From positions 41,200-105,199 of IMG/VR virus record IMGVR_UViG_3300027969_003844: DNA of 64,000 nt; one strand, given 5' to 3'. Source of the stretch: a virus. The notes below the pieces were generated by a model, which searched no databases, was not told the origin of the DNA, and saw nothing but the letters and a program-made list of their open reading frames with translations. Shown here one piece after another: positions 15,408 through 39,932 of this stretch (position 1 is the stretch's first letter; each line of letters opens with the position of its first letter). A program made the translations under genes and the position numbers.

Positions 15408-16868
15408 CTAAAATATTGAAATCTGATGCAGGTCTTGAAATTTTCTAGCATTTGCCCAGGTGTTGACCAAGGGCTCGCCCTTGATATTTAAACTGGTATT
15501 CATTAATACTGGACACCCACTTGCATCATACCATCTCTCTAGCAATTGTCTGAATACAGGGTTATCAAGACCATTGACTGTCTGAACACGGCTACTGTTA
15601 TCAACATGGCACACTCCCGGTAATATATCTGGTACCTTGCATTGAGCAACAAACTGCATGTAAGGACTAGATACAATTGGCATATCAAAATAATCAGCGG
15701 CATGTTCTTCTAAGATAGCAGGCGCAAACGGTCTAAATTGTTCGCGCTTTTTAATAGTATTCATTCTTGGCTTGGCTTCTTTGCCTCTAGGATCACATAA
15801 TAAACTACGATTGCCTAGTGCCCGTGGCCCAAACTCTGCACGACCATTTGCCACTGCCACCACTTCGCCTGCTAGAAGCTTTTTAACAATACCATCAATG
15901 TCTAATTCTCTATCAATGTTTGTACCCAGATATGGATGTTCCCATTTTAAATGTTGACCAGTATAAGCAGCCACGGCGCCAATTGCACTGCCAGCATCTC
16001 CGGGATTTGGCATTATCCATACATTATTGAATACCTTAGATTTTGCAATCCTACTGTTGGCAACACAATTAAGTGCAACACCGCCCATGAATACTAAATT
16101 TTCACTTGTGGTGTTCATACGCATGTTAATAACAGTTTCCATCAGGTAGTCTTCAACAATGCTTTGTACACATGCGGCAATGGTGAACTTATCAGCAGTC
16201 ACAGGAGGCTTCCACCACAAACAGCCCCTGTGCAAATTGTGTCTTAACTTAAACTTGGGTGCTGAAAATTCAATGAAGAATTCTTTTAATATTTCAGATT
16301 TTAGCAATTGATCAACATGTCCGTATGCTGCCATGCCCATAAGAATATATTCTTCCTCATTGGGTTTGAGTCCCAGGTACTGAGTAAATGCAGAATAAAA
16401 TAGGCCAATGCTGTCAGGATAACGCTTGCGCCATTTAGATTTTATCTTGTGGCCATGTCCTTCCCAAATGCTAACACTATCCCATTCTCCAATTGCATCA
16501 ACAACTAAGATCGCGGCGTTATCAAAGCCACTGGTATAATATCCTGCGGCTGCATGACTTTTATGGTGTTTACCATAATGCAAAGGTATGTTGTTAAGGC
16601 CAACACGTTTTAATTCTTCTTTGGCACTTTCGTAATACGGACGCTGACCAGCATAAAGATTACGTGTACTTTTTAGTAATGGGCTTTCGAACCAGACAAT
16701 GTCAGTGGGAGTACCATAATCAAACATTTCCTGTACCATGTCATAATTTAAAACACGGTCATTTTTATTTCTGCTGTACCGCTCTGCATGTCCAGCCCAT
16801 ACTATACGATTTCCGTTGATAAGAGCTAAACTGGCATCGTGATTTAATCCTGTTGCTCCTAGAATCAT
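15408..16868 (-). CDS. NodU/CmcH-family carbamoyltransferase
   Basis: 486 residues. The N-terminal ASKHA/Kae1-like half starts MILGATGLNHDASLALINGN, with HHKSHAAAGYYTSGF as the metal-binding His motif and VFMGGVALNCVANSRI. The C-terminal YrdC-like half has EFGPRALGNRSLLCDPR and FRPFAPAI. These enzymes transfer carbamoyl from carbamoyl phosphate to a hydroxyl group via carbamoyl-AMP, in Nod factors, antibiotics and modified nucleosides. It is the gene nearest the radical SAM cluster (1-nt gap) and is probably part of that pathway. Confidence 0.9.
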   Translation of the reverse strand: MILGATGLNHDASLALINGNRIVWAGHAERYSRNKNDRVLNYDMVQEMFDYGTPTDIVWFESPLLKSTRNLYAGQRPYYESAKEELKRVGLNNIPLHYGKHHKSHAAAGYYTSGFDNAAILVVDAIGEWDSVSIWEGHGHKIKSKWRKRYPDSIGLFYSAFTQYLGLKPNEEEYILMGMAAYGHVDQLLKSEILKEFFIEFSAPKFKLRHNLHRGCLWWKPPVTADKFTIAACVQSIVEDYLMETVINMRMNTTSENLVFMGGVALNCVANSRIAKSKVFNNVWIMPNPGDAGSAIGAVAAYTGQHLKWEHPYLGTNIDRELDIDGIVKKLLAGEVVAVANGRAEFGPRALGNRSLLCDPRGKEAKPRMNTIKKREQFRPFAPAILEEHAADYFDMPIVSSPYMQFVAQCKVPDILPGVCHVDNSSRVQTVNGLDNPVFRQLLERWYDASGCPVLMNTSLNIKGEPLVNTWANARKFQDLHQISIF

Positions 16869-16869
16869 G

Positions 16870-18942
16870 TTAAACTCTTTTCCATTTGCTTATTGAAATG
16901 TCTGCTCCGCAATGGCATCGTAGGCTATTGCAAATAACAGGATTAGATAATGTATTCCAATTAAGCTGGTCAAAATCCTTGACTGTTCCAATTACACCAC
17001 CCACATCACAATTGCCTCGTTTGATATGACCATTTTGATGAATGAACAGACTCTCTACACCAATGTTACAATTAAAATCGTAAAAGTTTGTTTGTCCTCT
17101 GTTAATTAATTCTTGTTCATTGTCAATGATTGCACGACTGCCATCACTGAATGTAGCAGTTGGGCTCCATGGTGGGAATGGACGATATATTGGATTAGTA
17201 ACAGAAATATTGTCAGGCGATGACCGTGTTTCGACTTGCTTAAAATTCTTGAAGAATTGATTTTGTTCTTCAGAATAATTAATTTTGGCCAACTTGGTTC
17301 TAGAACTACCGTATTGATCGTCGATATAAACTAGTTCAATTCTAGCAGTTGTAGTTTTCTTTGCTTGGTCGATAAACTCTAATGTTTCTTCCCAGTACAG
17401 TGGATCCATCATTATACGCAATGACACCATGGTTTGCATTGTGGCAATACGTATGCGATCTAAATAATCTTTGGCTGTGCCATTGGCAAATTCTTGTGCA
17501 GGATGAAAACTACATGCCGCATAGGTCAGATACTTAAAATTTTCTTTAATGAATCGAGGTGTTCTTGCCAGGTTAGTGGTAATGCCAACATTGCCACCCA
17601 AGCTATGTATCTTTTGAACCATTTGAGGGAAGAACGGGCTCATTGTTGGTTCCCCACCACTGAGTGAAAAATTAATGTACTTTCCATCCCAGTGCTCAAA
17701 CATCTTATCCAAGAAAGGTTCAATTTGTTCCCAATTAAACAAATGATTCTTTCCATTATGCAAAGACGATGGACAATATCTACAAGAATAATTACAGATA
17801 TCGTTAAGAATCCAAGTTACTATCACACGCTGTTCATTTTTAACTCCAACAATTTTTTTCCCTTGTACTGGGATTGGAAACTTCCATTGTGGGATTCTTG
17901 CTCTGGGATTTTCAATGCTTGAGTACATTTGAATATCGTCAACAATTTCAACATCCTGAATACTTCTAAATTTATTTAAATTAATGGTAATGCCAGTCAC
18001 TGGAGAATAGATTTTTTCAAGCTGAACATCAACCAATCGTCCAATGCCCATAAAACCATCTCTATTATCTGGGTTGCGCCACTGGTAATCTAAATGCTTG
18101 TCCTCATCAAGTTCTTTGAACTTTTTCCAGTCATTGGTCAATGTGTACGGATCATAGGAGTCGTGGATTAGATAGCATAGTATTTCATTAGACCAAGATT
18201 CTTGACGAGTAATAGAATTGTTATCAACTGCCACTCCATCCCCGTCGGCCACAACCCGGCTTAGATTTTTACCTTCTCCGTTGTAGCCCAGTACAAGATC
18301 ACCAAATCTTAAATGCGACATAAAACTGGCGGCATCTTCGTTGGTGATTTCAAAATCACGGCGTGGATTAAAACTAATTAATAAATTTGCTTCAGTTGAC
18401 GATGTTGTTTCAATTGTGGGCTTCTCATCCGACGCAGATGCTGCCAATGTTTCTGCAATGGTAATGGCATCATTTAGTTGATTAAATGTTGTGTGGAAGT
18501 CTTCGTTGAATGTAATACCTGGCCATTGTAATGCTTCTGGACTATCTGCAGGGATTCGTTGATACGCAGTATCCCACCATTTTTTAGATAACTTTTCTGC
18601 TACTCTTCCTTGATACTCATCAAATTGTTTATACAAATAATCAATAGCAGCCTGGTCGTATTTTTTAAAAATTGTCAATGGCTTGTCATAGAAAAGATTA
18701 ATCTTACGAATGATGTTGGTCAGACGCTCTTCAAATGCCATGTCTTTGGTTAAAAGAGTACGAGTAAATTTAATACGTTTATCCCTGAAACTTTTTTCTC
18801 CAAATTTCATATCTTCCAGTAACTGGCACCATTTAGCAGACAGCTTGGTATTATACAATCTGTAATACAGATCATAACATTCCCAGTTTTCTGGATTTAC
18901 CAATGTAATCCTAACATTTTTATTGTCAATAAACTTTCCCAT
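16870..18942 (-). CDS. Radical SAM protein with fused partner domain and C-terminal cysteine cluster
   Basis: 690 residues from an ATG with GAGG upstream. Residues 1-305 match two stand-alone proteins in this cluster (KLSAKWCQLL; FGDLVLGYNGEGKNLSRVV; WSNEILCYLIHDS). The radical SAM domain begins C383-x3-C387-x2-C390 (CNYSCRYC), with FSLSGGEPTM as the GGE motif. A C-terminal cysteine set (NCNIGVES, KRGNCDVGG, CNSLRCHCG) resembles auxiliary-cluster regions. The fusion implies that the partner family acts directly with radical SAM proteins. Substrate unknown. Confidence 0.85.
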   Translation of the reverse strand: MGKFIDNKNVRITLVNPENWECYDLYYRLYNTKLSAKWCQLLEDMKFGEKSFRDKRIKFTRTLLTKDMAFEERLTNIIRKINLFYDKPLTIFKKYDQAAIDYLYKQFDEYQGRVAEKLSKKWWDTAYQRIPADSPEALQWPGITFNEDFHTTFNQLNDAITIAETLAASASDEKPTIETTSSTEANLLISFNPRRDFEITNEDAASFMSHLRFGDLVLGYNGEGKNLSRVVADGDGVAVDNNSITRQESWSNEILCYLIHDSYDPYTLTNDWKKFKELDEDKHLDYQWRNPDNRDGFMGIGRLVDVQLEKIYSPVTGITINLNKFRSIQDVEIVDDIQMYSSIENPRARIPQWKFPIPVQGKKIVGVKNEQRVIVTWILNDICNYSCRYCPSSLHNGKNHLFNWEQIEPFLDKMFEHWDGKYINFSLSGGEPTMSPFFPQMVQKIHSLGGNVGITTNLARTPRFIKENFKYLTYAACSFHPAQEFANGTAKDYLDRIRIATMQTMVSLRIMMDPLYWEETLEFIDQAKKTTTARIELVYIDDQYGSSRTKLAKINYSEEQNQFFKNFKQVETRSSPDNISVTNPIYRPFPPWSPTATFSDGSRAIIDNEQELINRGQTNFYDFNCNIGVESLFIHQNGHIKRGNCDVGGVIGTVKDFDQLNWNTLSNPVICNSLRCHCGADISISKWKRV

Positions 18943-18958
18943 TTTAGCCTCTAAAATT

Positions 18959-20191
18959 TTATATATCAAGTAATTTTGTGTAGTCTGTGCCATGCAGGCG
19001 ATCAAGACCCTGTAGGTAATCCAGTGTTTGTGGGTACAAGTGACTCCAGTCTTCCGAATTCATAAATGTAATTAATCCAGCAAGTCTTTGCATTTGTACG
19101 TTCTTGGGATAACTTGCAAAATATGTTTCTAGTTTTTCCGTTACACGTTTTTTCATTTCTATTGGCAATACCTTGACACAAAGATATTGTGGCCAATGCA
19201 ATGTACCTGGATAGAATATGCCACCAATATTACTTTTACGAACCTTGTCAAGATTTAGGTTTAATAACCATTCGGACATTTCTGGCAACCAATTTATATT
19301 CAATGCTTGAACAGTGCATAACACTTTGACAATGATATTGTCTGGAGTGTCATTGTATAATTTTAAATTACGTTCAACCACTTCCCACTTGGCCGGACGA
19401 CGAATGTAATCATTGACCCAATCGTAACCATCAATACTGAGCATTAGTTCTACTTGCTTAAAGCTTTTCCAAAGCTCAACAATTTCTGGATTGTGTATAG
19501 TACAATTGGTATGGTAACGAAGTGTGATATTTTTAGCTAAATCACGTGCAACCAACTGTTCGATGATTGACTTGTGTTCTTTGATGTACAGTGGTTCGCC
19601 ACCACCAAAAATAATGTGTTGTATAGAGCTTGCATTTTCAAAGAAATCATCCCAAAATACTGGATCTTTATACCACTCAAACTGTTCGGCGGCATAGTTT
19701 TCAATTTTATATTTCCACTCATGTCTTGCGTCAGTTTCTAATGTTTCACTGAGTGTTTTTGCGTCCTTGACCCATTTGCTCGAGTCCTGTGGCCGACACA
19801 TTACACATTGTAGATTACATGTATTACCAAGTCGTAAATCTAGTGTAATCAAATCATGATCAACACGACCATTGCGGCGTGTACTATCAACTAGACCATC
19901 TAGGTACTCTGCATCCAAGTGCTTGTACCAGTATTGATTTTCGTTTTGCCTGTGACTTTTGATACCAGCAGATTCTTCTTTGTAACAAGTGGTACATGCA
20001 GGGAACTCACGTCCATTTAGCATTGCCAGTCTGGCTTCTGCAAAATGACTACTGTTCCAAATCTGTGACCAATTTGATTTATTTAGATTTAAGTTTGAGG
20101 CCTTGGCCACACAACATAACAATGCTGTACCATCATTATAAGTTGCCGCATGTATCCAAGGTAGAATACAAAAAGTTTTAGATTTATCCAT
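18959..20191 (-). CDS. Radical SAM protein with N-terminal twitch-type cysteines (CC class)
   Basis: 410 residues. The N-terminal auxiliary-cluster cysteines are C8 (FCILPW), C26-C27 (LLCCVAK) and C66-x2-C69. The SAM cluster motif is C125-x3-C129-x2-C132 (CNLQCVMC), followed by IIFGGGEPLY. This matches the twitch domain-containing radical SAM family known from phages and marine bacteria, whose reactions are undescribed. It overlaps the next upstream radical SAM gene by 8 nt. Confidence 0.9.
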   Translation of the reverse strand: MDKSKTFCILPWIHAATYNDGTALLCCVAKASNLNLNKSNWSQIWNSSHFAEARLAMLNGREFPACTTCYKEESAGIKSHRQNENQYWYKHLDAEYLDGLVDSTRRNGRVDHDLITLDLRLGNTCNLQCVMCRPQDSSKWVKDAKTLSETLETDARHEWKYKIENYAAEQFEWYKDPVFWDDFFENASSIQHIIFGGGEPLYIKEHKSIIEQLVARDLAKNITLRYHTNCTIHNPEIVELWKSFKQVELMLSIDGYDWVNDYIRRPAKWEVVERNLKLYNDTPDNIIVKVLCTVQALNINWLPEMSEWLLNLNLDKVRKSNIGGIFYPGTLHWPQYLCVKVLPIEMKKRVTEKLETYFASYPKNVQMQRLAGLITFMNSEDWSHLYPQTLDYLQGLDRLHGTDYTKLLDI

Positions 20192-21482
20192 TGATCAATT
20201 CTGCTATTCTGCTATCAAGTACTGTGACATCTTGTTCCCTGCTTTTGTCCAGGCTTTTTGTATATGTGCGTAAACGTTGCAATTGTTCTTCCCAGTCATC
20301 GGCTCTTGGTTGTTGTAATAGACCAATTATACCATTAACACTATTACGGGTTAATTCATGTACATTCTTAGGCATCTGATTGTCTCGATAATCCATTAGT
20401 AATTGACACGCTTTGGCTTTAAGATCGTCAGGTAATATGTTTACATTGAGATGATAAGGATGATAATTTATAAGCAGGTCAACAAAAATATCTTTATTGT
20501 GTTTTTTGTTGAGCTCGTCTACCCATAACAACGTTTCAACTAGATTAAAAACATTATAAACCTGCACCGTTGGAGTCACACCTAATTTGACATTTGATAG
20601 CTCTGCAATCTTCTCTACGTTTGCACTCAACTGACTCCACTTACTTGGCGCACGAATGTAATCATTTACAGCACCAATTCCGTCTAAGCTGGCATTAATA
20701 TTAATTTCATCAAATTGACTGATAATATCAAGAAACTTTTTATTAACGTTGGTACAGTTTGTATTAAAAAATAATAAAATATCTTTGCGACCTTGGTCAA
20801 TACAAGATTGCATAAATTTAAAATTGTTGCCAATAAGTGTTGGCTCGCCTCCGGTCATATAGACTTTCTTTAATTCTGGAATTAATGCGATAATCTGGTC
20901 CCATAACACATCGCTTTCAAACCATTCCTGTTGATCCATGACTGATATAGGAAACTTTCCAAATGCTTTACGCCAAACTTGTCCGTATGCTGGGTCTGTT
21001 TCTGTAAGCTCTAAGTGTTCCTTGGCAATCTGACTAGAATTCCATGGGTTGCACATTCTACATTTGAGATTGCACAAGTTGCCTAATCGCAAATCCAAAT
21101 ACACCAAATCAGAATTAACTACGCCACCGTGTATTTTTGCATAACGAACACGTTTGGCCAATTCTTCTTCGCCTAATCTCCAGGCCCATTCATTGTTTGC
21201 ATGTATTCTATTACTGTCTCGACCCGAATCTTCTTGAAGATAACAGACTTTACAACCTTCAATGTTATCACCATTGATCATTGCAGTACGAATATCACGC
21301 ATGTCTTGTCCGTTCCATGCATGTTCAATAAACTGATCCTGGATAGTAAAGAATTTACCATCCTCTTTTTTAAGTTTGTTGGCCGCGCCTTTCACCATGC
21401 AACAATACCGTACAGTTGCATCTGTATTGACCATTAGGCTAACAAAAGGAATAGCGCAAAACGTTTTTGAAATTGGTTTCAT
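20184..21482 (-). CDS. Radical SAM protein with N-terminal twitch-type cysteines (CC class)
   Basis: 432 residues. C9 (FCAIPF), C27-C28 (YCCMVK) and C77-x2-C80 form the N-terminal set. C137-x3-C141-x2-C144 (CNLKCRMC) is the SAM cluster motif, and VYMTGGEPTL follows. It is first in its transcript: a 72-nt gap upstream holds a GATAAGTA box 28 nt before the start. It shares layout, but not close identity, with the neighbouring paralogues, suggesting an old duplication rather than recent copying. Confidence 0.9.
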   Translation of the reverse strand: MKPISKTFCAIPFVSLMVNTDATVRYCCMVKGAANKLKKEDGKFFTIQDQFIEHAWNGQDMRDIRTAMINGDNIEGCKVCYLQEDSGRDSNRIHANNEWAWRLGEEELAKRVRYAKIHGGVVNSDLVYLDLRLGNLCNLKCRMCNPWNSSQIAKEHLELTETDPAYGQVWRKAFGKFPISVMDQQEWFESDVLWDQIIALIPELKKVYMTGGEPTLIGNNFKFMQSCIDQGRKDILLFFNTNCTNVNKKFLDIISQFDEININASLDGIGAVNDYIRAPSKWSQLSANVEKIAELSNVKLGVTPTVQVYNVFNLVETLLWVDELNKKHNKDIFVDLLINYHPYHLNVNILPDDLKAKACQLLMDYRDNQMPKNVHELTRNSVNGIIGLLQQPRADDWEEQLQRLRTYTKSLDKSREQDVTVLDSRIAELING

Positions 21483-23161: not shown

Positions 23162-24052
23162 CTATAATGAATATTTAGAAACAAAATAATTAAATGCATT
23201 GTCGGCTGCAATATCGTGTATATATTCCATGACATGGCCACCTGCACAGGCTACTGGTAATTTCTTATCTTGTTTTCCTGCAATATCTTCAAGGTCTATT
23301 AGATAATTAATATCCAATTCTTTAAAAAGCTGTTGAATTGACCAATTTATTGTTGATGGTGATTCCCTTGTTCCTGCTAGTTCAACTAGCCAGTCTGGTG
23401 CCGTTTCAGCAACCGATTTTGCAAAATACAAGTCAATTCCCTTGGCTTGGCAAAATGTTTTTAATAGTAGATTAGACATCAACCACTTGTGTAATCTTGC
23501 ATCTTCGTGTTCGTACATTATTGTGGTTTTGCGTATGGCATCAATTTGACTACTGTTGTATGATATTTCGTTGCTTAACAAAATAGAACTCCAATAATTG
23601 TGTGATTCTTCAAAGTATTGAATCCTATTAACACTGGTCGTTCCAACCAAGAAAATTATTTTTTTACCCTGTGTACGTCCATGTTTTGTTTCGTGCAGGT
23701 ATTGGTCAATGATTTCTCTAGTAATCCATTCTTGACTTGCACCACCACTTGCATGATTATGTACAGTACAGTTTACACCAGGACGGCTAGACAATCTCAT
23801 TCCAATTTTAGCAGGATATGCCCTACTATAATTTTCAATGATTTGTTGTTGCTGTTGATCTGCTGTAAGTTTGATAGTATTTTTACGATTAACCCATGCC
23901 TTGACCAATGCAGGTCTATTAATTTTATGAGTGGTGCCTCGCCACTCGCTGAAAGTTATGTCATCATGATCAATTTTGGGGTAAAATAAATCATCAGACA
24001 ATTCTTCACCAGCAGTAAAACTATCACCACATGCAAAAATTACCATTTCCAT
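23162..24052 (-). CDS. SGNH/GDSL-like hydrolase
   Basis: 296 residues. Block I is VIFACGDSFTAGEE, with Ser in GDSF. NHASGGASQEWITREI gives the block II Gly region, and KIIFLVGTTSVNRIQY stands where GxND is expected. GGHVMEYIHDIAADNAF near the end carries the candidate catalytic His. Block III lacks the usual Asn, so activity is not certain. SGNH enzymes commonly act as carbohydrate or lipid esterases or acyltransferases. It is embedded in the radical SAM cluster. Confidence 0.7.
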   Translation of the reverse strand: MEMVIFACGDSFTAGEELSDDLFYPKIDHDDITFSEWRGTTHKINRPALVKAWVNRKNTIKLTADQQQQQIIENYSRAYPAKIGMRLSSRPGVNCTVHNHASGGASQEWITREIIDQYLHETKHGRTQGKKIIFLVGTTSVNRIQYFEESHNYWSSILLSNEISYNSSQIDAIRKTTIMYEHEDARLHKWLMSNLLLKTFCQAKGIDLYFAKSVAETAPDWLVELAGTRESPSTINWSIQQLFKELDINYLIDLEDIAGKQDKKLPVACAGGHVMEYIHDIAADNAFNYFVSKYSL

Positions 24053-24054
24053 AA

Positions 24055-24792
24055 TTACATTATTGCCTTTAAACTATCTAACACAATTTGATTAAAAGGA
24101 TCACGGGCGCCACCATGGCTAATCATGTGAATTCTAGGAGTATTGCTATTGTTCCATACACTGTGCAAGTTTCCAATATCTACCAAGCAGGCATTGCCTT
24201 CATTCTTAAAAGGAACATAACCCTTGCCTTCCATTTTGAAATTACAGCCTTCTGGATTGTTCAATGCAACATTGATTGGTAGTAGAAAATGTTCGTTACG
24301 ATCCTTGTGCGGTTGAATATACCCTTGTGGGTCTAACCACATATAACGTAGTCTATGATATCTATGGTTAGGAAATATGTCACGAAAGTATCGTGTGGTT
24401 TCGGGACAACGTTCTGTTATCTCGCCACACCAATGGTAATTGATATCGTTGATTGTTTTACCCTTGTTGTCATCGTATGCTTCCCAGTGACCAGTTCTGT
24501 CCCAAGCTTCACCGTGTAAGCAAATACTTTTCCAACCGCGATTGGCATATTCGGGGTTTTCATCTGGATGTGTTCTGTGCATTTGAAATAGGTCTTGCAT
24601 GGCAAATGCTTCGCGAAGCATGTCTGCGAAGGGAGCACCAGGAAGAATTAGTGGCAAGTAAGGCCAGCCACTTTTCATTATGATCCAATCAACTAGTTCA
24701 TGTTCATGCTCAAACTTTGGCAATTGAACAGTTTTAAAATCCATGGTCCATGGACTATCATTGAAAAATTCTACAATTGCTTTTGGTATCAT
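24055..24792 (-). CDS. Aspartyl/asparaginyl beta-hydroxylase-like dioxygenase
   Basis: 245 residues from an ATG that overlaps the upstream stop (ATGA). The cupin core reads YMWLDPQGYIQPHKDRN (HxD iron ligands), then LPINVALNNPEGCNF, then DIGNLHSVWNNSNTPRIHMI with the distal His and the 2-oxoglutarate-binding Arg. This is the Asp_Arg_Hydrox form, a Fe(II)/2-oxoglutarate hydroxylase. Substrates of the family are Asp/Asn side chains or lipids. It is a second oxidative enzyme type within the radical SAM cluster. Confidence 0.82.
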   Translation of the reverse strand: MIPKAIVEFFNDSPWTMDFKTVQLPKFEHEHELVDWIIMKSGWPYLPLILPGAPFADMLREAFAMQDLFQMHRTHPDENPEYANRGWKSICLHGEAWDRTGHWEAYDDNKGKTINDINYHWCGEITERCPETTRYFRDIFPNHRYHRLRYMWLDPQGYIQPHKDRNEHFLLPINVALNNPEGCNFKMEGKGYVPFKNEGNACLVDIGNLHSVWNNSNTPRIHMISHGGARDPFNQIVLDSLKAIM

Positions 24793-26174
24793 TTTATTAC
24801 ATTCCCTATATGTGTCCAACCTGGCGTCCCAGTGCTGGTTGTTCCACAAATTTGCAGGCTGGTGTTGTTTAATTTAAGTTCATTTATAAATGTATCGTAC
24901 ACTGACTTTAACCATGCTGGTTTAAAGTGGCGAAGGCTTGCTTCTGTATAGAAACTGTTACTAAACCAAATTAAGTTATTACCTTGATGTTGATTCATGT
25001 CTGCAATTAATTCACTGCGCTCATAATACAGGTTAGTCTTCAGGAATCTATGCTCAAGGGCGCGGTATCGGTTCCATAAATCTAACCAAGCGGCTTCGCC
25101 ACCAAATACATCCATTGTTTTTTCCCATTGGTCAGTGTATTCTTTTTTCCCAAACCAAATTGGACTAAACGTTGGATCAACATGAGCAATATAATGTTGA
25201 ATAATATCCAAATAATTACGGCCGTCCCAATTCTTTAGTAACCATTCTTTAAATGCCAGTGCAGAATCACTGTAATCAAAATATATAACTCGTGTGGTTG
25301 AGTCCCACTTGCATTGATCTAAGAACTGAATTGGCTTGAAGCCTGCAGCCACACAATACAAATTGTCTAGCTTGGTCGATTTGTCATATGCAATATAATC
25401 GCGATTCATTGAATCAGTATTAAACACATAAACTGAGCCCTGAAAACCAGAAAAGTCTGTTATTCTTACGTAGTCGCGCTGATTAGGTTCAACTGGTTCT
25501 ATTGTAGAATTGCCATCTAAAATCTTTTCAAGATCAGTTCCTACTTCTGGATAGAAGTGCATTTTAAATTTTCTAAGCTCTTCGGAAAAATTACCAATGC
25601 TAAATCCATGTGATAGTAATGTACTAGCAAGATTCCAACCTTCTCTTACAGGGCCAGTGTATTGTCTTGTTTCAGTTGTAGGTAAAATATAAAATGGAGT
25701 ATATCCATCGTGAAAGTCTTCTGTACTACGATTTACCAATGGTAGTGTTACATTATCAACGTTTGTATGATTACCCCATGATGGGCTTCCAACATGCCTC
25801 CAATGGTTTAAATTGATCAATGCACATTGATTATGCAAGGAGTAAAATCCTTGCTCTTTATTCTCTGGATTATCTTCCAGTATGTGTGCTAGAACACTAT
25901 AATTATTATCTTCAGCATACTTAATCATGGCATCTACTAAAAATACATCATAGCTACGATAACCATATGCTACAATATAAAGATAGTCTCCATCTAGTGA
26001 TCTGGCCGCATCAATGATTGAATCTATTGTGTTGCCAACAATCAATTCATCGATTGGTATATTACGCATTGTCAATTGCATAGATACAGCAAAGTCGGTG
26101 ATAGCTCTGACATGGTCTTGATAACCCTGTGATCTATCATTGATCTGGTTTAAAAGTGCAAATTTAATTTTCAT
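24789..26174 (-). CDS. Uncharacterised radical-SAM-associated protein (WSN family)
   Basis: 461 residues. The N-terminal half (DYLYIVAYGYRSYD; HILEDN; GFYSLHNQCALINLNHW; FHDGYTPFYI) looks like a Rossmann-type glycosyltransferase-like fold, though no motif proves it. The C-terminal half (RVIYFDYSDSALAFKEWLL, NWDG, NLIWFSNSFY) resembles the N-terminus of the 497-aa neighbour and a family seen, by memory, in environmental phages. 'FDYS ... NLIWFSN' could suggest a methyltransferase-like fold. Function unknown. Confidence 0.65.
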   Translation of the reverse strand: MKIKFALLNQINDRSQGYQDHVRAITDFAVSMQLTMRNIPIDELIVGNTIDSIIDAARSLDGDYLYIVAYGYRSYDVFLVDAMIKYAEDNNYSVLAHILEDNPENKEQGFYSLHNQCALINLNHWRHVGSPSWGNHTNVDNVTLPLVNRSTEDFHDGYTPFYILPTTETRQYTGPVREGWNLASTLLSHGFSIGNFSEELRKFKMHFYPEVGTDLEKILDGNSTIEPVEPNQRDYVRITDFSGFQGSVYVFNTDSMNRDYIAYDKSTKLDNLYCVAAGFKPIQFLDQCKWDSTTRVIYFDYSDSALAFKEWLLKNWDGRNYLDIIQHYIAHVDPTFSPIWFGKKEYTDQWEKTMDVFGGEAAWLDLWNRYRALEHRFLKTNLYYERSELIADMNQHQGNNLIWFSNSFYTEASLRHFKPAWLKSVYDTFINELKLNNTSLQICGTTSTGTPGWTHIGNVIK

Positions 26175-26177: not shown

Positions 26178-27119
26178 TTACTCTATTAGTCTAACGGCAG
26201 AAACTTTGCCTAGCTCGAGAATTTCGTTTACTTCGGTGTACGTTACTTTATCTCTATTTACTAGCTGTCCCAGTAATGGTCTTGCCACTGCTTGATTTTC
26301 TGGCAATGACATATTTACGTACTCGTCTAGTTCATTATCATGTACCCATTTCTTTACTTCTTCTAAGTGCATTTTTGAAGCACCTGGGTATGGTTCTCTA
26401 TTTCTTTCTGAGAAACTCAGTACTACTTCATTGCTAATAGTACGTTGTGGTCTAATCATATTTTTCTTGACTAATTCAACATCGTTATCAACAAAGCAAT
26501 GGTAAATGTTCTTTCCAACTGTATGATAGCCTAACAATAAGTCACCAAATGATACGTCATGTAAAAAGTATTCGTACAGCGACGGATCAGTGATTTCTTC
26601 TACATGAGTTCCAGTAACAATACCCGCGGATGGACTTGCATGTAAAAAGAAACCTGCACTTATGTCACCACCGTAGTTGTCAATCATTGCTTCAAGGATG
26701 TGAATGTCAACATTTAATCTAATTAAAGGATCATAACCTACAATTAGTCCATCAAGTTCTTCTTCAAACCGATGAAATTCATAGTGTAAATAATTCAATA
26801 TCTGTCGATTGTCTCTGGTCTCATCAAACTCTTCTGGCATGTCAATGAAATCAACTTGAATGTATTCTCCAGAATTTGCTTCGTCTACTAACTTTTTCAT
26901 GCCCTTCCAAATAGCTTTGATTTTTTCCTTGGTCGGCGCACTTGCTATCCACTGATTTTCAAAAATATGGCAATCAGGTTGAGCCATTACCCAACGTACA
27001 CGCTCTAGCCATTTTTCAGCAATGGGTGTGTCTGCAATTTGAAATCGTAATGTTTTTGTTACTTCACCGTCGGTAAAGTCGATTTCATAAAATTTATCTA
27101 AGAAGTTATATGTTGTCAT
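26178..27119 (-). CDS. Stand-alone radical SAM partner protein
   Basis: 313 residues. Shared blocks with the 690-aa fusion and the 497-aa protein are LRFQIADTPIAEKWLERV, LNYLHYEFHRFEEELDG, VSFGDLLLGYHTVGKNIYH and ISNEVVLSFSERN. There is no Cys cluster or catalytic signature. Because the same domain is fused to a radical SAM protein 7 kb away, it is best read as a substrate-binding or partner subunit. Its start overlaps the end of the 418-aa radical SAM gene by 14 nt. Confidence 0.75.
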   Translation of the reverse strand: MTTYNFLDKFYEIDFTDGEVTKTLRFQIADTPIAEKWLERVRWVMAQPDCHIFENQWIASAPTKEKIKAIWKGMKKLVDEANSGEYIQVDFIDMPEEFDETRDNRQILNYLHYEFHRFEEELDGLIVGYDPLIRLNVDIHILEAMIDNYGGDISAGFFLHASPSAGIVTGTHVEEITDPSLYEYFLHDVSFGDLLLGYHTVGKNIYHCFVDNDVELVKKNMIRPQRTISNEVVLSFSERNREPYPGASKMHLEEVKKWVHDNELDEYVNMSLPENQAVARPLLGQLVNRDKVTYTEVNEILELGKVSAVRLIE

Positions 27120-28362
27120 TTAAGTATCCAAAAATAGCAATCTTGCTCATGTCCTTGTTTCTACGTTTTGCAAACTGCTCAAAGAAAGACAGGTAATCTT
27201 TTGCCAGCGGGACTTGATTAGGTGCTTCGCGAACGTCAAGTAATGTCAACAGTCTTTTGTAACGATCTGTTTCGTGACTGTTTAATTGAGGTAATATATC
27301 TAAAAACACTGTTTCATATTTGTTGTGGTAATAGTCAAGCAATTTTTGATCTAAAATCTTGAAGCTTTGGAACTCAGGGTAAGTTAAAAAGTTAAAGTCA
27401 ACTGACACAGGTGTACGCATGGTTTGTCGCAAATTGATTATATCTTCTAAGAAGTTATCAAAGTTTTGTAAACACATTGCACTGATTGTGGTCATTACAA
27501 ATATATGGTCAAGCCCGGCGTCGTCTAAGAATTTAATATTGTCAAGCCACTCTCGATAGTTCATTCCATCTCGCAGTATTTCTGCAACATGGTCAGCACT
27601 TTCGTTACTGGTGTATATAGAAACCTGTTTAATACCTTTGATTTTTTCTTTGAATCTTTCTAATACCAATGGCTTCTGACAGAGATTAGAATTAATTGCA
27701 ATTTTAACATTGGGATTCTTAGTACGAACCTTGTCTAACAAATCAAATGTTTGTTCGTGTAATAACGGCTCTCCACCAGTGATACGAATAATATCAATGT
27801 CGTCAACTACAGTATCAAACCAGGCCCAGAACAAGTCAAAGTCAACTGGAGTATCTTGGTATTGCTCTATTGGTCGTTGGTAATGTTTACGAGCATCTGT
27901 TGTAATGTTTTGATATACTCCGTTGTTTTTGATATCATTTGCCCATTGTGAACTAAAGTCTGCATTACAGTAAGAACAACCTAAATTGCAAGTCTTCTGA
28001 AACGCTAGCTCTAGTACCTTAGGTTTAAAGTTAAAATTAGGATCTAAATACTCAGCTGGAGTTAGATGATCAGGATAGCTAACTGATTTGAATTCTCTGT
28101 CGCTAGTTAATCCTTGTGCTTCCAGCTTCCAGCAATAGCTACAAGGGTCTGGCTTTTCACCAGCAAGCATTGATTTTTGCTGAGTACGCTTCTCGTATGT
28201 ATTATAAAAAGTCTCAACAGTTGATCCAGTGCTGTGAAAAGGATTATGATGGCAACTGGCAATTTTACCACTATACAACCAAATTGTTGCTTCGTGAAAC
28301 TTTGCCATGCAAAAGGTATTGCTGGTATTGGCCCATAAGTTTTCTAGTTGTATTTTTTGCAT
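27106..28362 (-). CDS. Radical SAM protein with SCHH-type N-terminal cysteines (CHH class)
   Basis: 418 residues. C18 (FCMAKFHEATIWL), C37 followed by His-His (ASCHHNPFH) and C74-x2-C77 (CSYCWKLE) replace the Cys-Cys form of the other paralogues. The SAM cluster motif is C125-x3-C129-x2-C132 (CNLGCSYC) with IRITGGEPLL. INSNL and a TSNES strand follow. Its stop/start overlaps the next radical SAM gene by one base (TAATG), so the genes are co-translated. Confidence 0.9.
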   Translation of the reverse strand: MQKIQLENLWANTSNTFCMAKFHEATIWLYSGKIASCHHNPFHSTGSTVETFYNTYEKRTQQKSMLAGEKPDPCSYCWKLEAQGLTSDREFKSVSYPDHLTPAEYLDPNFNFKPKVLELAFQKTCNLGCSYCNADFSSQWANDIKNNGVYQNITTDARKHYQRPIEQYQDTPVDFDLFWAWFDTVVDDIDIIRITGGEPLLHEQTFDLLDKVRTKNPNVKIAINSNLCQKPLVLERFKEKIKGIKQVSIYTSNESADHVAEILRDGMNYREWLDNIKFLDDAGLDHIFVMTTISAMCLQNFDNFLEDIINLRQTMRTPVSVDFNFLTYPEFQSFKILDQKLLDYYHNKYETVFLDILPQLNSHETDRYKRLLTLLDVREAPNQVPLAKDYLSFFEQFAKRRNKDMSKIAIFGYLNDNI

Positions 28363-29693: not shown

Positions 29694-30915
29694 TGTCGTT
29701 GGTCTCATAACGTGGCAACAGTCCTCTGATATAGTCTAATATCTCTGGTGCAACAAAGTGTCTAGTTTTTTGTTCTCGTGACAAGTCAACCAAATAAAAT
29801 TTATTATAAATTGTTATTAGTTCGTTGTTGCTTGGCAAACGGCTGTTCATATGATTAATCAGTCCCTTGATCACTTCCTTGTCAAGAGCACTTTTATTCC
29901 ACTTGTCTTCAATGAGGTCTTTGGCACCGTCGGGCAATGCCCATAGAGCCATGTGTGCCGGGCTATGAATCAAATTGTACCAAATTGCAAAGGTAGGAGT
30001 ATTGGTTTGTATCCATTCAACAAATTTAGGCAAGTCCCAGGCATTGATCCAACCAATGGTGTGACTAATAGAAATATTTGTGTTGTCTAACTCTCCATTG
30101 GCCTTCATTGCATTGTACTTGATTAGGTTTTCTTGTACTTCATCCCATTTACCAGGATAACGAAGATAATCATAGGTTCGACCAAGACCGTCAATGCTTA
30201 GGCCTAATCCAACTGATTTAAAATTGTCGTTTAGGAATTTAACACGCTCTCCAGAAAAGATTGTGGCATTTGAACTTAATGAAATATTAATTTCCTTACT
30301 ACGGCCACTGGCCACAAACTCATCCCATATATCATTCCATTGCTGAATATAAAATGGTTCGCCACCTACGATTTCTAAGTTTTGTACATGTTGCATCCAC
30401 TCATGTCTATTTTTCCAAAGTAATCCATTCTTGTCACCGCTTTGACTAAATTTCATTTCGTAACCAGTGTTGCCGTAAATTTTCTTGTGTTCGGCTTGCC
30501 ATAGATTACTGTGACTTGGTGAACAACTACGACACTTTAGATTACAAGCATTGTTGATAATCATTTGATATTCATATGGCAGGCCCGGCTCAGCATCAAA
30601 GTCAACTATTGACTCATAGGTGTTATCTACATTTCTGGTATAAATCTGACGCTTGCTTTTGTGGCCATTGTTTTCGTCAATGATGCATGTTTCGCATGCC
30701 AGTGGCTTTTTGCCATCACGGAAATCCTGGCGTAACTTCTTCATGTAGTTACTGGAAAATATTTCCGTTACTGTATTAGTTTGAACATGCATGAACTCGC
30801 CATTGTCATCCTTAATGTAGTCTTTGTAAAGACAGCAGGGACGAACTTTACCGTCAGGATCGTTACTAAATCCCGTCCAGGGCAGGCTACAAAGCCATTT
30901 TTTAGATTGAGTCAT
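29686..30915 (-). CDS. Radical SAM protein with N-terminal twitch-type cysteines (CC class)
   Basis: 409 residues. C9 (LCSLPW), C27-C28 (RPCCLYKD) and C74-x2-C77 precede the SAM motif C124-x3-C128-x2-C131 (CNLKCRSC). LEIVGGEPFY is the GGE motif, and LSSNATIF and LSIDGLGRTYDYLR follow. It overlaps the next upstream gene by 14 nt and the downstream one by 8 nt. Confidence 0.9.
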   Translation of the reverse strand: MTQSKKWLCSLPWTGFSNDPDGKVRPCCLYKDYIKDDNGEFMHVQTNTVTEIFSSNYMKKLRQDFRDGKKPLACETCIIDENNGHKSKRQIYTRNVDNTYESIVDFDAEPGLPYEYQMIINNACNLKCRSCSPSHSNLWQAEHKKIYGNTGYEMKFSQSGDKNGLLWKNRHEWMQHVQNLEIVGGEPFYIQQWNDIWDEFVASGRSKEINISLSSNATIFSGERVKFLNDNFKSVGLGLSIDGLGRTYDYLRYPGKWDEVQENLIKYNAMKANGELDNTNISISHTIGWINAWDLPKFVEWIQTNTPTFAIWYNLIHSPAHMALWALPDGAKDLIEDKWNKSALDKEVIKGLINHMNSRLPSNNELITIYNKFYLVDLSREQKTRHFVAPEILDYIRGLLPRYETNDND

Positions 30916-32245
30916 ACCAGTTTATAAACCTTTGATCCAGTGATTCACGGAAATTCTTATTTCGTCTTTTGTCATATTGTGCCACGTATGATTTTAAATC
31001 TTGCAGGGCATCTTCTTCTCTTACATGCTGTTCCCATTTAACATTTGTTTCTGACATGTTAATAATTAGCCGTTCAACGTGGGCAATTTCTGTGTCGTGA
31101 CATAAGCTTTTGTTTTCATTTAGCCATGCAGTAAATTCATTGACCAATTGCATTCTCAACTCAAGTGGAATAAGTTGAACACGCATAAATGCTGGTGAAT
31201 GAACAAAGTTACAATTAAGCTCAACTCTTAACTGACCGTATTTAATCTTAAGGTCTTTGATCATATTTAGATAATCAATCATTGACCATACGCCAAGATT
31301 ATTAATGCTTGTGGTAAAGTTTAATCTATTAATAACATAGCTTGGACTTTCAAGAACTGTGATTACATTCTTCATCCATACATCGCCGTCAAACCCATCT
31401 CGAATGTATTCAGTTTGTAGCAATGAACTTTCAATACTAGTATGCAACACTGTTCTAAAATTGCTACCTACTGCATCAAGCAAACGCTGTAGCACATCTT
31501 CTTTGCAAACAAGATTGGTGTTAATAGAAAGGTCCTTGTTGAATTCGCCTTCTTTTAATCTATCCAGGAATCGCCAAAAGTTTGGACTCATTGTCGGCTC
31601 TCCGCCAGTGACTCGCAGCCACTTTAAGTCTTTTTCTAGCGTTGGCAACCAGTTGAAAAATGCTTCTACGTATGGATTTTCTCCCTGATCAATCATGTCG
31701 TCATCATTTGATGTTATGTAACGTCGATCAGTGATTAGTCCTTCATATGGTCCGTGATTCTTGATATCATTGGCCCATTTGGTGCTAAAAGCTGGACCAC
31801 AGTATGCACATGCCAAATTGCAAATTCTATCAAACGCAATCTCTAGCATATAAGGATTGGTTGTCAATGGTTGGCCGCCAGTGGCCCATTGATGCAATTG
31901 CTTGCCTGGTACCGCCTGTGTTTTAATATAGCGATCACTAAGGCCGCCATCAGCTTCAATACTCCAGCAATAATTACAGCCACTGGGCTTTTCGCCGTCG
32001 AGCATGGCCTGACGTTCTCTCATTTTTTGCGGAGTGTTTTGTAGACTCGACGGATCGTTAGGATCTAATTCAATTTTATGAAATGGATTGTGATGGCAAC
32101 TGGCTGTTGCACCTTGATACAACCAAATTGTACCTTCAAACCATTTAGCCCCACAAAAACTAGGGCTAATCTTGTCCATATGCTCTTCTTTAAAGATTTT
32201 AAATCGAGCAGTTTCTCCTGTTTGATGATTTGATAAGTCTGCCAT
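30902..32245 (-). CDS. Radical SAM protein with SCHH-type N-terminal cysteines (CHH class)
   Basis: 447 residues from MADLSNHQ. C31 (FCGAKWFEGTIWL), C50 plus His-His (ASCHHNPFHK) and C90-x2-C93 (CNYCW) form the N-terminal set. C142-x3-C146-x2-C149 (CNLACAYC) is the SAM motif, with LRVTGGEPTM. The stretch FHKIEL...QKMRERQAMLDGEKPSGC is shared with the other CHH-class proteins. The gap to the upstream gene is one base. Confidence 0.9.
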   Translation of the reverse strand: MADLSNHQTGETARFKIFKEEHMDKISPSFCGAKWFEGTIWLYQGATASCHHNPFHKIELDPNDPSSLQNTPQKMRERQAMLDGEKPSGCNYCWSIEADGGLSDRYIKTQAVPGKQLHQWATGGQPLTTNPYMLEIAFDRICNLACAYCGPAFSTKWANDIKNHGPYEGLITDRRYITSNDDDMIDQGENPYVEAFFNWLPTLEKDLKWLRVTGGEPTMSPNFWRFLDRLKEGEFNKDLSINTNLVCKEDVLQRLLDAVGSNFRTVLHTSIESSLLQTEYIRDGFDGDVWMKNVITVLESPSYVINRLNFTTSINNLGVWSMIDYLNMIKDLKIKYGQLRVELNCNFVHSPAFMRVQLIPLELRMQLVNEFTAWLNENKSLCHDTEIAHVERLIINMSETNVKWEQHVREEDALQDLKSYVAQYDKRRNKNFRESLDQRFINWYDSI

Positions 32246-32246
32246 A

Positions 32247-33641
32247 TTAAAGTTCAATCCCGTTGTACCAATCTGCTAGTCCCGGAAATGCCTCAGTGAA
32301 ATTCTTACCACGACGTTGATCATATTGCTGATAGAAACTCTTGAAATCCTTTTCAAGTTTTTCTCTTTCATATGCACCAGTGTGTGGAGTTTTAACAACA
32401 TCGAGATAATCAATAACTCGTTGTGTTTGATTAATTTCCATTTGATGTAATTTTATATCATCTCTATCTTTGTTGTTGTCAAGCCATAGTTGTAACCTGT
32501 CCTTGCGTACCTGACGCATTTCATCTGGTAACACTGTTAAACTTTGAAAACTAGGGAATCGTAAAAAGTTTAAAGTAAACACGCCAAAGTCTCTTCCGTA
32601 TTGTTTTTTAAATTCTACAACCCAATCTAAAAATTCAGGAAGACTTTCTAAGCAAAGTAAATTAATTGTACACATGATATGCAATGCTCTGAAACGTCCA
32701 CTGCTGGCAAGCTTATGCATATTCATTTTCCACTGCTCGTAATCAAGTCCATCCCGGATGTACTCAGCTTGTAAGCCAATGGATTCATTGCTGGTATAGA
32801 TTTGCAAATCATCAATGTACTGAGCTCGGTCAATTAGTCTATCAATTAATTCGTCTTTGCCGCCAAGGTTGCTATTAACTGCCAACCGCATATTGGGATT
32901 ACGAGTATTTTTAGGATCTGCAAACCAGTCCAATAAACGCCAGGTATGCGGACTCATCAATGGCTCGCCACCAGTGATACGAAGTTCGTACAGTGTACGA
33001 TGTAAATCACTTTCCCACCATTTAAAGAATGCTTCAATGTAAGGATTGCTTGGGTCATGGTCATATACACCAGCTGACTCATGCAAGTGATCAAAGTGTC
33101 CTCGACCATCTGTGTATAATTTTGTGTAAGGACCAAACTTCTTTAAATCATTTACCCAAGTTGTACTAAATGCTGGATTGCAATAAGAACATGCAAATTG
33201 ACATGTACGATCAAAAGCAATTTCTAATGTACGCAAGTCAACATCATTGTTATAGTCACCCTCCCATGCTTCTTTTAAAAGTTCTTCAGTGTAGATTTCA
33301 CTTTTATAAACTCGATCACTGATGTTGTCACGACCAATGTCTTCAACTTTCCAGCAGTACTCACATCCTGACGGACGCTCGCCATCTTGCATTTGTTTTC
33401 TCTCATTTTTCTTATGAGCTGTATTATGAATAGCCTTAGGATTGAATTTGATCTCTTTAAGATCTGCTTGGTGAGGCAATGGGTGATGACAGCTAGTGGT
33501 TTGGCCGCTGCCTAGCCAGATAGTAGAATTATACCACTTGGCCAGACATAAACTTTTACTATGACTATCTAGTAATTTTTTAACTCCATGGTCTGACGCT
33601 TGAATTTCTCTAATTGATAATGGTTGATTTTGTGTTGTCAT
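32247..33641 (-). CDS. Radical SAM protein with SCHH-type N-terminal cysteines (CHH class)
   Basis: 464 residues. C32 (LCLAKWYNSTIWL), C51 plus His-His (TSCHHPLPHQ) and C93-x2-C96 (CEYCWKVED) precede C147-x3-C151-x2-C154 (CQFACSYC) and LRITGGEPLM. Asn after the first SAM cysteine is replaced by Gln, a tolerated change. The end, YDQRRGKNFTEAFPGLADWY, recurs in the neighbouring CHH-class proteins. The start shares a base with the upstream stop. Confidence 0.9.
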   Translation of the reverse strand: MTTQNQPLSIREIQASDHGVKKLLDSHSKSLCLAKWYNSTIWLGSGQTTSCHHPLPHQADLKEIKFNPKAIHNTAHKKNERKQMQDGERPSGCEYCWKVEDIGRDNISDRVYKSEIYTEELLKEAWEGDYNNDVDLRTLEIAFDRTCQFACSYCNPAFSTTWVNDLKKFGPYTKLYTDGRGHFDHLHESAGVYDHDPSNPYIEAFFKWWESDLHRTLYELRITGGEPLMSPHTWRLLDWFADPKNTRNPNMRLAVNSNLGGKDELIDRLIDRAQYIDDLQIYTSNESIGLQAEYIRDGLDYEQWKMNMHKLASSGRFRALHIMCTINLLCLESLPEFLDWVVEFKKQYGRDFGVFTLNFLRFPSFQSLTVLPDEMRQVRKDRLQLWLDNNKDRDDIKLHQMEINQTQRVIDYLDVVKTPHTGAYEREKLEKDFKSFYQQYDQRRGKNFTEAFPGLADWYNGIEL

Positions 33642-37936: not shown

Positions 37937-37938
37937 TG

Positions 37939-38633: not shown

Positions 38634-38642
38634 TATATGTCC

Positions 38643-39932
38643 TTAATTGATTGAATTCCACCAGGTTAATATTTCAGGTCGACCCGCTAATATATTAGTC
38701 ATAGTATACACGTCTTTTCTAATTTGTTCAACCTGTATAATACGGCGTTTGCCCATAATCAAGCCCGATTGCCATTTATCAGGCCATTCTTCAGCAAAAG
38801 TGGGCCTTGCTTTAAGCTGAATTAATATATCTTGTAGTGGACCAGTTACTGTTGGAATTAGTTCATCTAACCAAGGATGCAGTAATTCTTTTGGCAATGC
38901 CAATGGTGACATTACAATATCAGGGGAAAAGCTAAAAATTACTTTTGCCAGTACATCTACATCAAGCTCATTGGATAGTTTCTGAATATTTTGAACTTCA
39001 AATAAACCTGGCAACGTAAGAGTAAAATCAAGACGGATCTGTTGATGATGTTGGCGAATTGCAACTCCTTGACGGAAATTTTCCAACCACTGGGGATAGT
39101 TAAGACCTGTCCTAATGTATTCGCCAATTTTGCCAGTACCGTCAATGCTTGCACATATTTGCCAGTCACGTAAATTAGGCAAGATATCAGTGTACAAGTT
39201 AATACCTTTGTAACTGATTCTACTGAGGTTGGTATTGTATCTAGCATACACTGTTGGACCGTCGCCCAGTTCAACGATGCGTTTCATGTAATGCCAATGT
39301 TGCTGGTACATTAATGGTTCGCCACCAACCCAATAGACTTCTTCAACACGATGTTGTTCTACGGCATCCGAAAACTCTTTTTCTACTTGTATACTTTGAA
39401 AGTTTTCAATTTGCTTTTTAACATCAGGGTTCATCCAGGCATTTTTTGGATTGTTCCAATTGATCATATTGTGCTGACGTTGTTCACTTTCTATTGAGCT
39501 AGAAAGCATACCTCCGCACATACGGCATTTGAAATTACATAGGTTACTAAATCGGTAATCCCAACTGATTGGTCTTACAGTGGTAAATCCATCTTTATCT
39601 GTATTGGCAATAACATCATCATACTTGTGACCAAATAGTTGATTAAAATAACTTCGATATACGTCAGTGTTAAGCAATTTATCATTGCATACTTCGCACT
39701 CGGGTAAAGTTTCTCCAGCCATCATTCGGCGACGAACTGAACGCATATGATCGCTGTTCCAGTGCTCTTCTAGTGTAAGAGGAATGTACTTTCCAGTACC
39801 AGGAGCAGTGTCAATGTATTGTTGAAAGTTTTGTGCTGGTTCTCGAGACGCACAACACATCCTGCGTTCGGTTTGCGGACTTAGATAGGTATGCACAAAT
39901 GGTGCCATACAAAATGTAGGTGGTTTGATCAT
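38643..39932 (-). CDS. Radical SAM protein with N-terminal twitch-type cysteines (CC class)
   Basis: 429 residues. C8 (FCMAPFVHTY), C26-C27 (MCCASRE) and C79-x2-C82 are the auxiliary set. C132-x3-C136-x2-C139 (CNFKCRMC) is the SAM motif, followed by VYWVGGEPLM and ARYNTNLSRI. It is the last member of the cluster, in an operon with a conserved phage gene and upstream of several small phage genes. Confidence 0.9.
   Translation of the reverse strand: MIKPPTFCMAPFVHTYLSPQTERRMCCASREPAQNFQQYIDTAPGTGKYIPLTLEEHWNSDHMRSVRRRMMAGETLPECEVCNDKLLNTDVYRSYFNQLFGHKYDDVIANTDKDGFTTVRPISWDYRFSNLCNFKCRMCGGMLSSSIESEQRQHNMINWNNPKNAWMNPDVKKQIENFQSIQVEKEFSDAVEQHRVEEVYWVGGEPLMYQQHWHYMKRIVELGDGPTVYARYNTNLSRISYKGINLYTDILPNLRDWQICASIDGTGKIGEYIRTGLNYPQWLENFRQGVAIRQHHQQIRLDFTLTLPGLFEVQNIQKLSNELDVDVLAKVIFSFSPDIVMSPLALPKELLHPWLDELIPTVTGPLQDILIQLKARPTFAEEWPDKWQSGLIMGKRRIIQVEQIRKDVYTMTNILAGRPEILTWWNSIN

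What the first reader, a model, noticed from the sequence alone, without database searches (positions are those of the whole stretch)
15408..39932. A 24-kb phage cluster of eleven radical SAM proteins of unknown product
Eleven proteins with intact Cx3Cx2C motifs lie in one locus with a carbamoyltransferase, an SGNH protein, an Asp/Asn-hydroxylase-like dioxygenase and two uncharacterised families. Every paralogue keeps its SAM and auxiliary cysteines, so all look active, not decaying copies. Genes overlap by 1-14 nt. No known phage pathway uses so many radical SAM enzymes. Inference: a multi-step biosynthesis or repeated modification of a polymer (glycan, protein or nucleotide).
Basis: partly seen in the sequence, partly recalled or inferred. 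Interest (0 to 1): 0.92.

Follow-up and report, generated by a model that had tools for sequence, protein, structure and literature searches.

The report
Phage radical-SAM sugar-modification gene cassette
A large aquatic bacteriophage carries a block of ten to eleven radical-enzyme genes tied to a conserved hydroxylase and glycosyltransferase-like pair, a recurrent but undescribed viral pathway that probably builds an unusual modified sugar structure.

Summary
In detail: eleven intact radical SAM (rSAM) proteins lie in 15408-39932 of a T4-like, incomplete 105-kb virus record. Ten belong to one known family of unknown function (NF033640, N-terminal twitch rSAM); the eleventh is a different rSAM fused to a domain found three times here. 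A syntenic relative shows strong purifying selection; it lacks the 38643-39932 gene, so the core is 15408-36587.

It is not unique: at least 585 viral stretches encode relatives, one 242-kb record has 22, and a T4-like genome with 12 rSAM genes was published in 2017. New here is the conserved centre: an Asp/Asn-hydroxylase-type dioxygenase, a two-domain protein predicted as glycosyltransferase-A fold plus methyltransferase fold, and a 'LGY' domain without a PDB match. These recur together in phage loci, are fused pairwise in every combination, and recruit rSAM, carbamoyltransferase, SGNH and sugar genes. Bdellovibrionota genomes carry the same module, once inside a glycan locus. The phage also encodes IscU, an A-type carrier and a flavin reductase, fitting heavy Fe-S demand.

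Best reading: a cytosolic pathway that attaches and radically remodels a sugar on an unknown acceptor. The chemistry is inferred, not shown.

The parts
15408..16868 (-). Carbamoyltransferase (NodU/TobZ/NovN family); nearest solved relatives carbamoylate sugar or macrolide hydroxyls
   Evidence: Pfam Carbam_trans_C/N 179.5 and 159.2 bits; PDB NovN, GdmN, TobZ; syntenic in L084
16870..19005 (-). N-terminal LGY domain fused to C-terminal rSAM of the 'rSAM2' type; start probably nearer 18942
   Evidence: stand-alone rSAM2 relatives in 53 of 80 loci
18959..20191 (-). N-twitch rSAM (NF033640), conserved tandem pair member B
   Evidence: 369.6 bits; own clade from 29 loci, support 0.99
20184..21482 (-). 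N-twitch rSAM (NF033640), conserved tandem pair member A
   Evidence: 359.7 bits; relatives in 18 loci, same pair order in L088
21555..23048 (-). Stand-alone LGY-domain protein with N-terminal extension
   Evidence: LGY profile 7.5e-28 over 156-469; no Pfam or PHROG family above cut-off
23162..24052 (-). SGNH-family hydrolase-like protein; tandem duplicate in the relative
   Evidence: matches the SGNH neighbour profile built here; two copies in L084
24055..24849 (-). Fe(II)/2OG Asp/Asn-hydroxylase-type dioxygenase (AspH_a), start probably 24792
   Evidence: PF05118 3.8e-12; PHxD...H-x9-R invariant, profile matches human ASPH and L-proline cis-4-hydroxylase
24789..26174 (-). f24789: predicted GT-A-like N-domain plus class-I methyltransferase-like C-domain
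   Evidence: AlphaFold pLDDT 91.4; Foldseek GT-A and methyltransferase hits
26178..27119 (-). Stand-alone LGY-domain protein, confident model without PDB match
   Evidence: pLDDT 88.7; no PDB hit with E below 0.1
27106..28362 (-). N-twitch rSAM, 'SCHH' expansion group
   Evidence: 258.4 bits
28362..29708 (-). N-twitch rSAM
   Evidence: 320.4 bits
29686..30915 (-). N-twitch rSAM
   Evidence: 274.4 bits; dN/dS 0.025
30902..32257 (-). N-twitch rSAM, 'SCHH' group
   Evidence: 257.6 bits
32247..33641 (-). N-twitch rSAM, 'SCHH' group
   Evidence: in A1; ortholog in L084 316.8 bits
33641..35233 (-). N-twitch rSAM, 'SCHH' group
   Evidence: 318.1 bits
35292..36587 (-). N-twitch rSAM; first gene of the conserved block
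   Evidence: 272.9 bits; 72% identical ortholog in L084
38643..39932 (-). N-twitch rSAM outside the conserved block, absent from the syntenic relative
   Evidence: 284.8 bits
52323..52643 (-). A-type Fe-S carrier, probable support function
   Evidence: PF01521 9.6e-19
52627..53016 (-). IscU scaffold, probable support function, uninterrupted here
   Evidence: PF01592 3.7e-52
60138..60881 (-). Flavin NAD(P)H reductase, possible electron source for rSAM (inference)
   Evidence: PF00175 and PF00970

Best explanation
A phage-encoded, cytosolic sugar-conjugate pathway. The AspH_a dioxygenase hydroxylates an acceptor (or a precursor); f24789 transfers a sugar through its GT-A-like domain and methylates through its methyltransferase-like domain; the LGY proteins act as a shared substrate- or partner-binding module that brings the hydroxylase, transferase and rSAM enzymes to the same substrate. 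The twitch rSAM paralogues then do successive C-H chemistry (epimerisation, deoxygenation, dehydrogenation or C-C bond formation), the carbamoyltransferase caps a sugar hydroxyl, and the SGNH protein adds or removes an acyl group. Phage IscU, A-type carrier and flavin reductase supply clusters and electrons. Shown: gene content, motifs, selection, synteny, co-occurrence and fusions, predicted folds. Inferred: every catalytic step, the glycan product and the acceptor. The acceptor is more likely a virion protein or a host surface glycan precursor than an exported polymer, because no gene of the core block encodes an evident membrane protein.
For: Core linkage: of 80 loci found with f24789 alone, 75 carry AspH_a, 44 LGY and 37 twitch rSAM; of 70 loci found with LGY alone, 54 carry AspH_a, 50 f24789, 41 twitch rSAM. 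Pairwise fusions: LGY+AspH_a (L009, L010), AspH_a+f24789 (L103, L153), f24789+LGY (L242), LGY+rSAM2 (window), f24789+B12-rSAM (L005, L006), f24789+twitch rSAM (L081). f24789 folds like a GT-A enzyme (COLGALT1, LH3, PBCV-1 capsid glycosyltransferase 2p73, FKRP) followed by a class-I methyltransferase (NNMT), with conserved G278 and invariant D300 where that fold binds SAM. AspH_a keeps its metal and 2OG residues in 65 of 68. Carbamoyltransferase nearest NovN, TobZ, GdmN. Neighbours elsewhere include UDP-glucose dehydrogenase and proteins read by eye as heptose and epimerase genes (L134). A bacterial copy sits beside proteins that read as GT2, GT-C and an epimerase (L244). Fe-S support.
Against: Foldseek matches of f24789 are domain-level (whole-chain TM about 0.2-0.3) and it lacks a canonical DXD motif, so the transferase domain may bind something else or be inactive. 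AspH-family enzymes also hydroxylate peptides, free amino acids and lipid A (general knowledge). Many SPASM/twitch rSAM enzymes modify peptides. No product, acceptor or expression data. The GTx family frequent in other loci is absent from this window's cassette, and some loci have the LGY/AspH_a/f24789 trio without any detected rSAM (L153-L156).
Confidence: 0.45

Rival explanations
1. A protein or peptide modification system: the hydroxylase and rSAM enzymes act directly on side chains of a phage structural protein or peptide, with glycosylation as one step (collagen hydroxylysine-galactose-like logic).
For: AspH_a is closest to peptide Asp/Asn and free-proline hydroxylases; Foldseek of f24789 includes collagen hydroxylysine galactosyltransferase and LH3, which join hydroxylation and glycosylation, and AspH_a+f24789 fusions mirror that; many SPASM/twitch rSAM relatives are peptide maturases; the record encodes a collagen-like fibre protein.
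Against: No precursor gene fits inside the block (largest gap 113 nt); the collagen-like gene is more than 30 kb away and unlinked; carbamoyltransferase and, elsewhere, UDP-glucose dehydrogenase point to sugars; no collagen-like protein found in other cassette loci.
Confidence: 0.27
2. A diffusible small molecule, such as a modified nucleoside or aminoglycoside-like compound made during infection.
For: Carbamoyltransferase, aminotransferase, amidinotransferase-like and rSAM enzymes occur in antibiotic pathways; NovN, TobZ and GdmN are the nearest carbamoyltransferases.
Against: No exporter, synthetase or resistance gene in the core block; LGY/AspH_a/f24789 fusions suggest a shared macromolecular or carrier-bound substrate.
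Confidence: 0.13
3. DNA, RNA or nucleotide hypermodification protecting the phage genome.
For: Phages do use rSAM and dioxygenases on nucleic acids (general knowledge); PP-loop QueC-like neighbours occur in 33 of 80 loci.
Against: No PP-loop gene was detected in the window cassette; bacterial copies of the module lie on chromosomes, one in a glycan locus. DNA-modification genes were not searched systematically.
Confidence: 0.08
4. Redundant paralogues kept without a single pathway, for example interchangeable copies acquired by recombination.
For: The 'SCHH' group looks like a lineage expansion; one gene is dispensable in the relative.
Against: dN/dS 0.025-0.19; conserved tandem pair across diverse phages; fused partners.
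Confidence: 0.07

Closest known systems
NF033640 'twitch domain-containing radical SAM protein'
   Same: Ten of the eleven belong to this family by score or orthology
   Different: The NCBI family is a subfamily-level name without function; its association with LGY/AspH_a/f24789 and its tandem phage arrays are not in any description I found
T4-like environmental virus TARA_ERS488813_N000010 with 12 rSAM genes (PMC5332604)
   Same: Marine T4-like phage with as many rSAM genes plus an A-type carrier; authors stress Fe-S metabolism
   Different: No clustering, core module or glycan link was described in the text read
Pelagimyophage host recognition cluster (PMC7029224)
   Same: Hypervariable phage island with glycosyltransferases and 'radical SAM' gene cassettes; UDP-glucose dehydrogenase among its genes; Asp/Asn hydroxylase core to these phages
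   Different: The paper treats rSAM only as variable cassettes and proposes O-chain change; it does not describe the trio or fusions
Collagen lysyl hydroxylase LH3 and COLGALT1
   Same: Works like: a 2OG hydroxylase coupled to a GT-A enzyme, sometimes in one chain
   Different: Not a member: AspH-type instead of lysyl hydroxylase, no DXD, different partners; similarity is fold-level and weak
PBCV-1 capsid glycosyltransferase (PDB 2p73)
   Same: Viral protein with a GT-A domain matched by the f24789 model; virus makes its own capsid glycan
   Different: Eukaryotic algal virus; no rSAM or LGY partners known to me

Membership tests
Radical SAM superfamily | CxxxCxxC for the SAM-binding 4Fe-4S cluster | tested here: met
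   all eleven; invariant in A1 and present in 16870-19005
NF033640 N_Twi_rSAM | score above the 170-bit cut-off over the full length | tested here: met
   nine of ten 257-370 bits; the tenth through its ortholog
NF033640 N_Twi_rSAM | 16870-19005 as a member | tested here: not met
   19.4 bits, rSAM core only; it is a different rSAM type
Asp/Asn beta-hydroxylase family PF05118 | His metal ligands and 2OG-binding Arg | tested here: met
   H181, H229, R239 invariant; profile aligns with ASPH
GT-A glycosyltransferases (f24789 N-domain) | GT-A fold | tested here: met
   predicted model only, Foldseek prob 0.99-1.0 to 2p73 and FKRP and viral GT-A models
GT-A glycosyltransferases (f24789 N-domain) | DXD metal-sugar motif | tested here: not met
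   not among conserved columns; so called GT-A-like, not a GT
Class-I SAM methyltransferases (f24789 C-domain) | Rossmann fold with motif I glycine and acidic residue at the end of strand 2 | tested here: inconclusive
   fold prob 1.0 to NNMT; G278 and D300 conserved, but motif I is degenerate (AxGFK)
Sugar O-carbamoyltransferases | Carbam_trans N and C domains, closest to TobZ/NovN | tested here: met
   substrate untested
RiPP maturation cluster | small precursor peptide gene in the operon | tested here: not met
   no intergenic space over 113 nt within 15408-36587; an unlinked precursor is not excluded
Exported polysaccharide (Wzx/Wzy or ABC) cluster | flippase, polymerase or transporter | tested here: not met
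   no hydrophobic segment of transmembrane strength in any gene of 15408-36587

The most novel reading that the evidence does not exclude
A previously undescribed class of viral biosynthetic system in which a novel-fold (LGY) adaptor couples a dioxygenase and a GT-A/methyltransferase-like enzyme to swappable batteries of twitch rSAM enzymes, so that phages assemble diversified, radically edited glycoconjugates on their own virions or on the host surface.
Probability: 0.35. Interest if true: 0.88.

Novelty: new variant of a known kind. Interest (0 to 1): 0.72.

Why it matters
Phages are known to glycosylate DNA, virions and host surfaces with a few transferases. A recurrent phage module spending over 20 kb on ten rSAM enzymes plus its own Fe-S supply implies chemistry not known from viruses, and offers a defined gene set (trio plus conserved rSAM pair) for finding the substrate of a widespread enzyme family with no function. 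The pairwise fusions make the core testable with few proteins.

Tried and rejected
Cultured phages: tblastn of 18959 found 3 weak records, of 24789, 24055 and 26178 none, so isolates do not help. PDB profile searches with f24789, LGY and GTx found nothing meaningful. Foldseek of LGY found nothing. The T4-type late promoter TATAAATA is absent from the cassette, so timing could not be inferred; consensus sigma-70 sites are at about shuffle level. The 74-aa s14 family, considered as a possible precursor peptide, is absent from the window. The first link of f24789 to B12-rSAM was single-linkage clustering through the L005/L006 fusions; f24789 itself has no rSAM motif. Export and embedded-precursor models were rejected on gene content.

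Full report
What is there. The window is bases 41200-105199 of a 105-kb virus record. It reads as a T4-like phage: clamp loader, PhoH, peptide deformylase, Clp proteins and six tRNAs (proteins identified by reading the translations). In 15408-39932, minus strand, eleven rSAM proteins are open and intact. Ten carry an N-terminal twitch-like region with four invariant cysteines besides CxxxCxxC and belong to NF033640. The eleventh, 16870-19005, is an rSAM core of another type behind a domain of about 330 residues; that domain recurs alone at 26178-27119 and within 21555-23048. I call it LGY after its LGYxTxGK motif.

Are they active genes? A relative (L084, 72-80% nucleotide identity) keeps the order from 35292 to 15408, with one extra SGNH copy. 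dN/dS is 0.025-0.19 wherever synonymous change is not saturated. The gene at 38643 has no counterpart among the relative's N_Twi matches, so I treat 15408-36587 as the core block.

How common? One pattern scan of viral contigs gave at least 585 relatives, with up to twelve twitch-profile hits in about 21 kb. Twenty-one further virus records checked whole all had NF033640 members, one with 22 matches. The tree of 140 non-redundant twitch rSAM proteins puts 18959 in a well-supported clade from 29 loci; 20184 has relatives in 18 loci but with weak support. Both stand in the same order in L088. The four 'SCHH' proteins (27106, 30902, 32247, 33641) fall close together and look like a lineage expansion; deeper support there is weak.

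What goes with them? I searched separately with the 24789 family and with LGY, neither query containing rSAM. Of 80 f24789 loci, 75 contain AspH_a, 44 LGY, 37 twitch rSAM; of 70 LGY loci, 54 AspH_a, 50 f24789, 41 twitch rSAM. These counts include near-identical contigs and loci cut by contig ends, and the LGY profile misses a short LGY-like variant next to f24789 in L091 and L134, so they are indicative rather than exact. All three pairs of the trio occur as fusions, and rSAM is fused to LGY or f24789. Some loci have the trio without a detected rSAM gene (L153-L156), so the trio is the centre and the rSAM enzymes are the variable part.

What do the parts look like? AspH_a keeps the ligands of the Asp/Asn hydroxylase family. 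The f24789 model (pLDDT 91) matches GT-A enzymes and class-I methyltransferases; from the order of strands and the conserved residues I place the first in the N-terminal and the second in the C-terminal half. Whole-length TM scores are low because these are single-domain matches, and a DXD motif is missing. LGY (pLDDT 89) has no PDB match with E below 0.1. The carbamoyltransferase is nearest NovN, GdmN and TobZ. No protein of the block has a segment of transmembrane hydrophobicity.

Bacterial copies. A genome-collection scan found one Halobacteriovoraceae MAG with AspH_a, f24789, LGY, B12-rSAM, GT2, YdjC and carbamoyltransferase in about 20 kb and four twitch rSAM genes on the same contig. Five of 114 genomes of its phylum carry f24789. 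In one, AspH_a-f24789 lies with SGNH genes and proteins that read as an epimerase and GT2-, GT-C- and GT4-like proteins (L244; by sequence reading); another has two twitch rSAM and two other rSAM genes around an AspH_a/f24789 fusion (L243). This is the main reason for preferring glycan.

Cofactor supply. The window has IscU, an A-type carrier and a flavin reductase. IscU occurs in 10 of 22 cassette records against 16 of 50,697 phage records; that comparison is biased because the phage collection holds few large environmental phages and the two searches differ in sensitivity. A-type carriers are in 13 of 22.

Prior literature. PMC5332604 reported a T4-like genome with 12 rSAM genes and Fe-S assembly genes; PMC7029224 reported rSAM cassettes and glycosyltransferases in the host recognition cluster of SAR11 phages. 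I found no description of the trio, the fusions or a product (open-access papers only).

Verdict. Real, conserved and recurrent. The rSAM family and rSAM-rich phages are known; the trio-centred module and its fusions appear new. A sugar-conjugate pathway is the best reading at about 0.45, with direct protein modification the main rival.

Noticed in passing
L245, L246, L248-L380 (viral contigs; e.g. L245 bases 49-424); not in the window's own IscU at 52627-53016: Of 107 phage iscU hits (81 distinct sequences) found by searching for GAPACG followed by a stop, all resume as GGN GAY G.. after a 3-7 nt gap (3:1, 4:55, 5:28, 6:19, 7:4) starting with TGA, TAA or TAG, right behind the catalytic Cys. 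Varying gap length and frame fit translational hopping from one Gly codon to the next (as in T4 gene 60) better than a fixed frameshift; the downstream frame stays open in 101 of 107. The stop was part of the query. No report found in one paper search.
   Followed up: partly
window 52323-53973: A-type carrier, IscU and a further rSAM protein lie together; a second A-type carrier lies near contig base 32740.
   Followed up: partly
L033, L035, L065, L068, L078, L198 and six more: A conserved 74-residue protein (s14) sits after GTx genes and mostly before an rSAM gene in 12 loci; function unknown, absent from the window.
   Followed up: partly
window 13370-15381: Next to the cassette: a DNA/RNA non-specific endonuclease with a hydrophobic N-terminus (14566-15381) and a lipoprotein-like protein (13370-14503), unusual for a phage.
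   Followed up: no
L001 17866-19998 and L002 1-2243: Collagen-like GXY repeats in a long fibre-like phage protein of the same record.
   Followed up: no
L134 whole locus: The LGY-like/f24789/AspH_a trio lies in a phage island of sugar genes (epimerases, heptose-like and transketolase-like proteins by sequence reading).
   Followed up: no
L153-L156, L129, L202: Trio without any detected rSAM gene; in L153 and L154 it is embedded in a T4-like replication module next to clamp-loader and recombination-type genes.
   Followed up: partly
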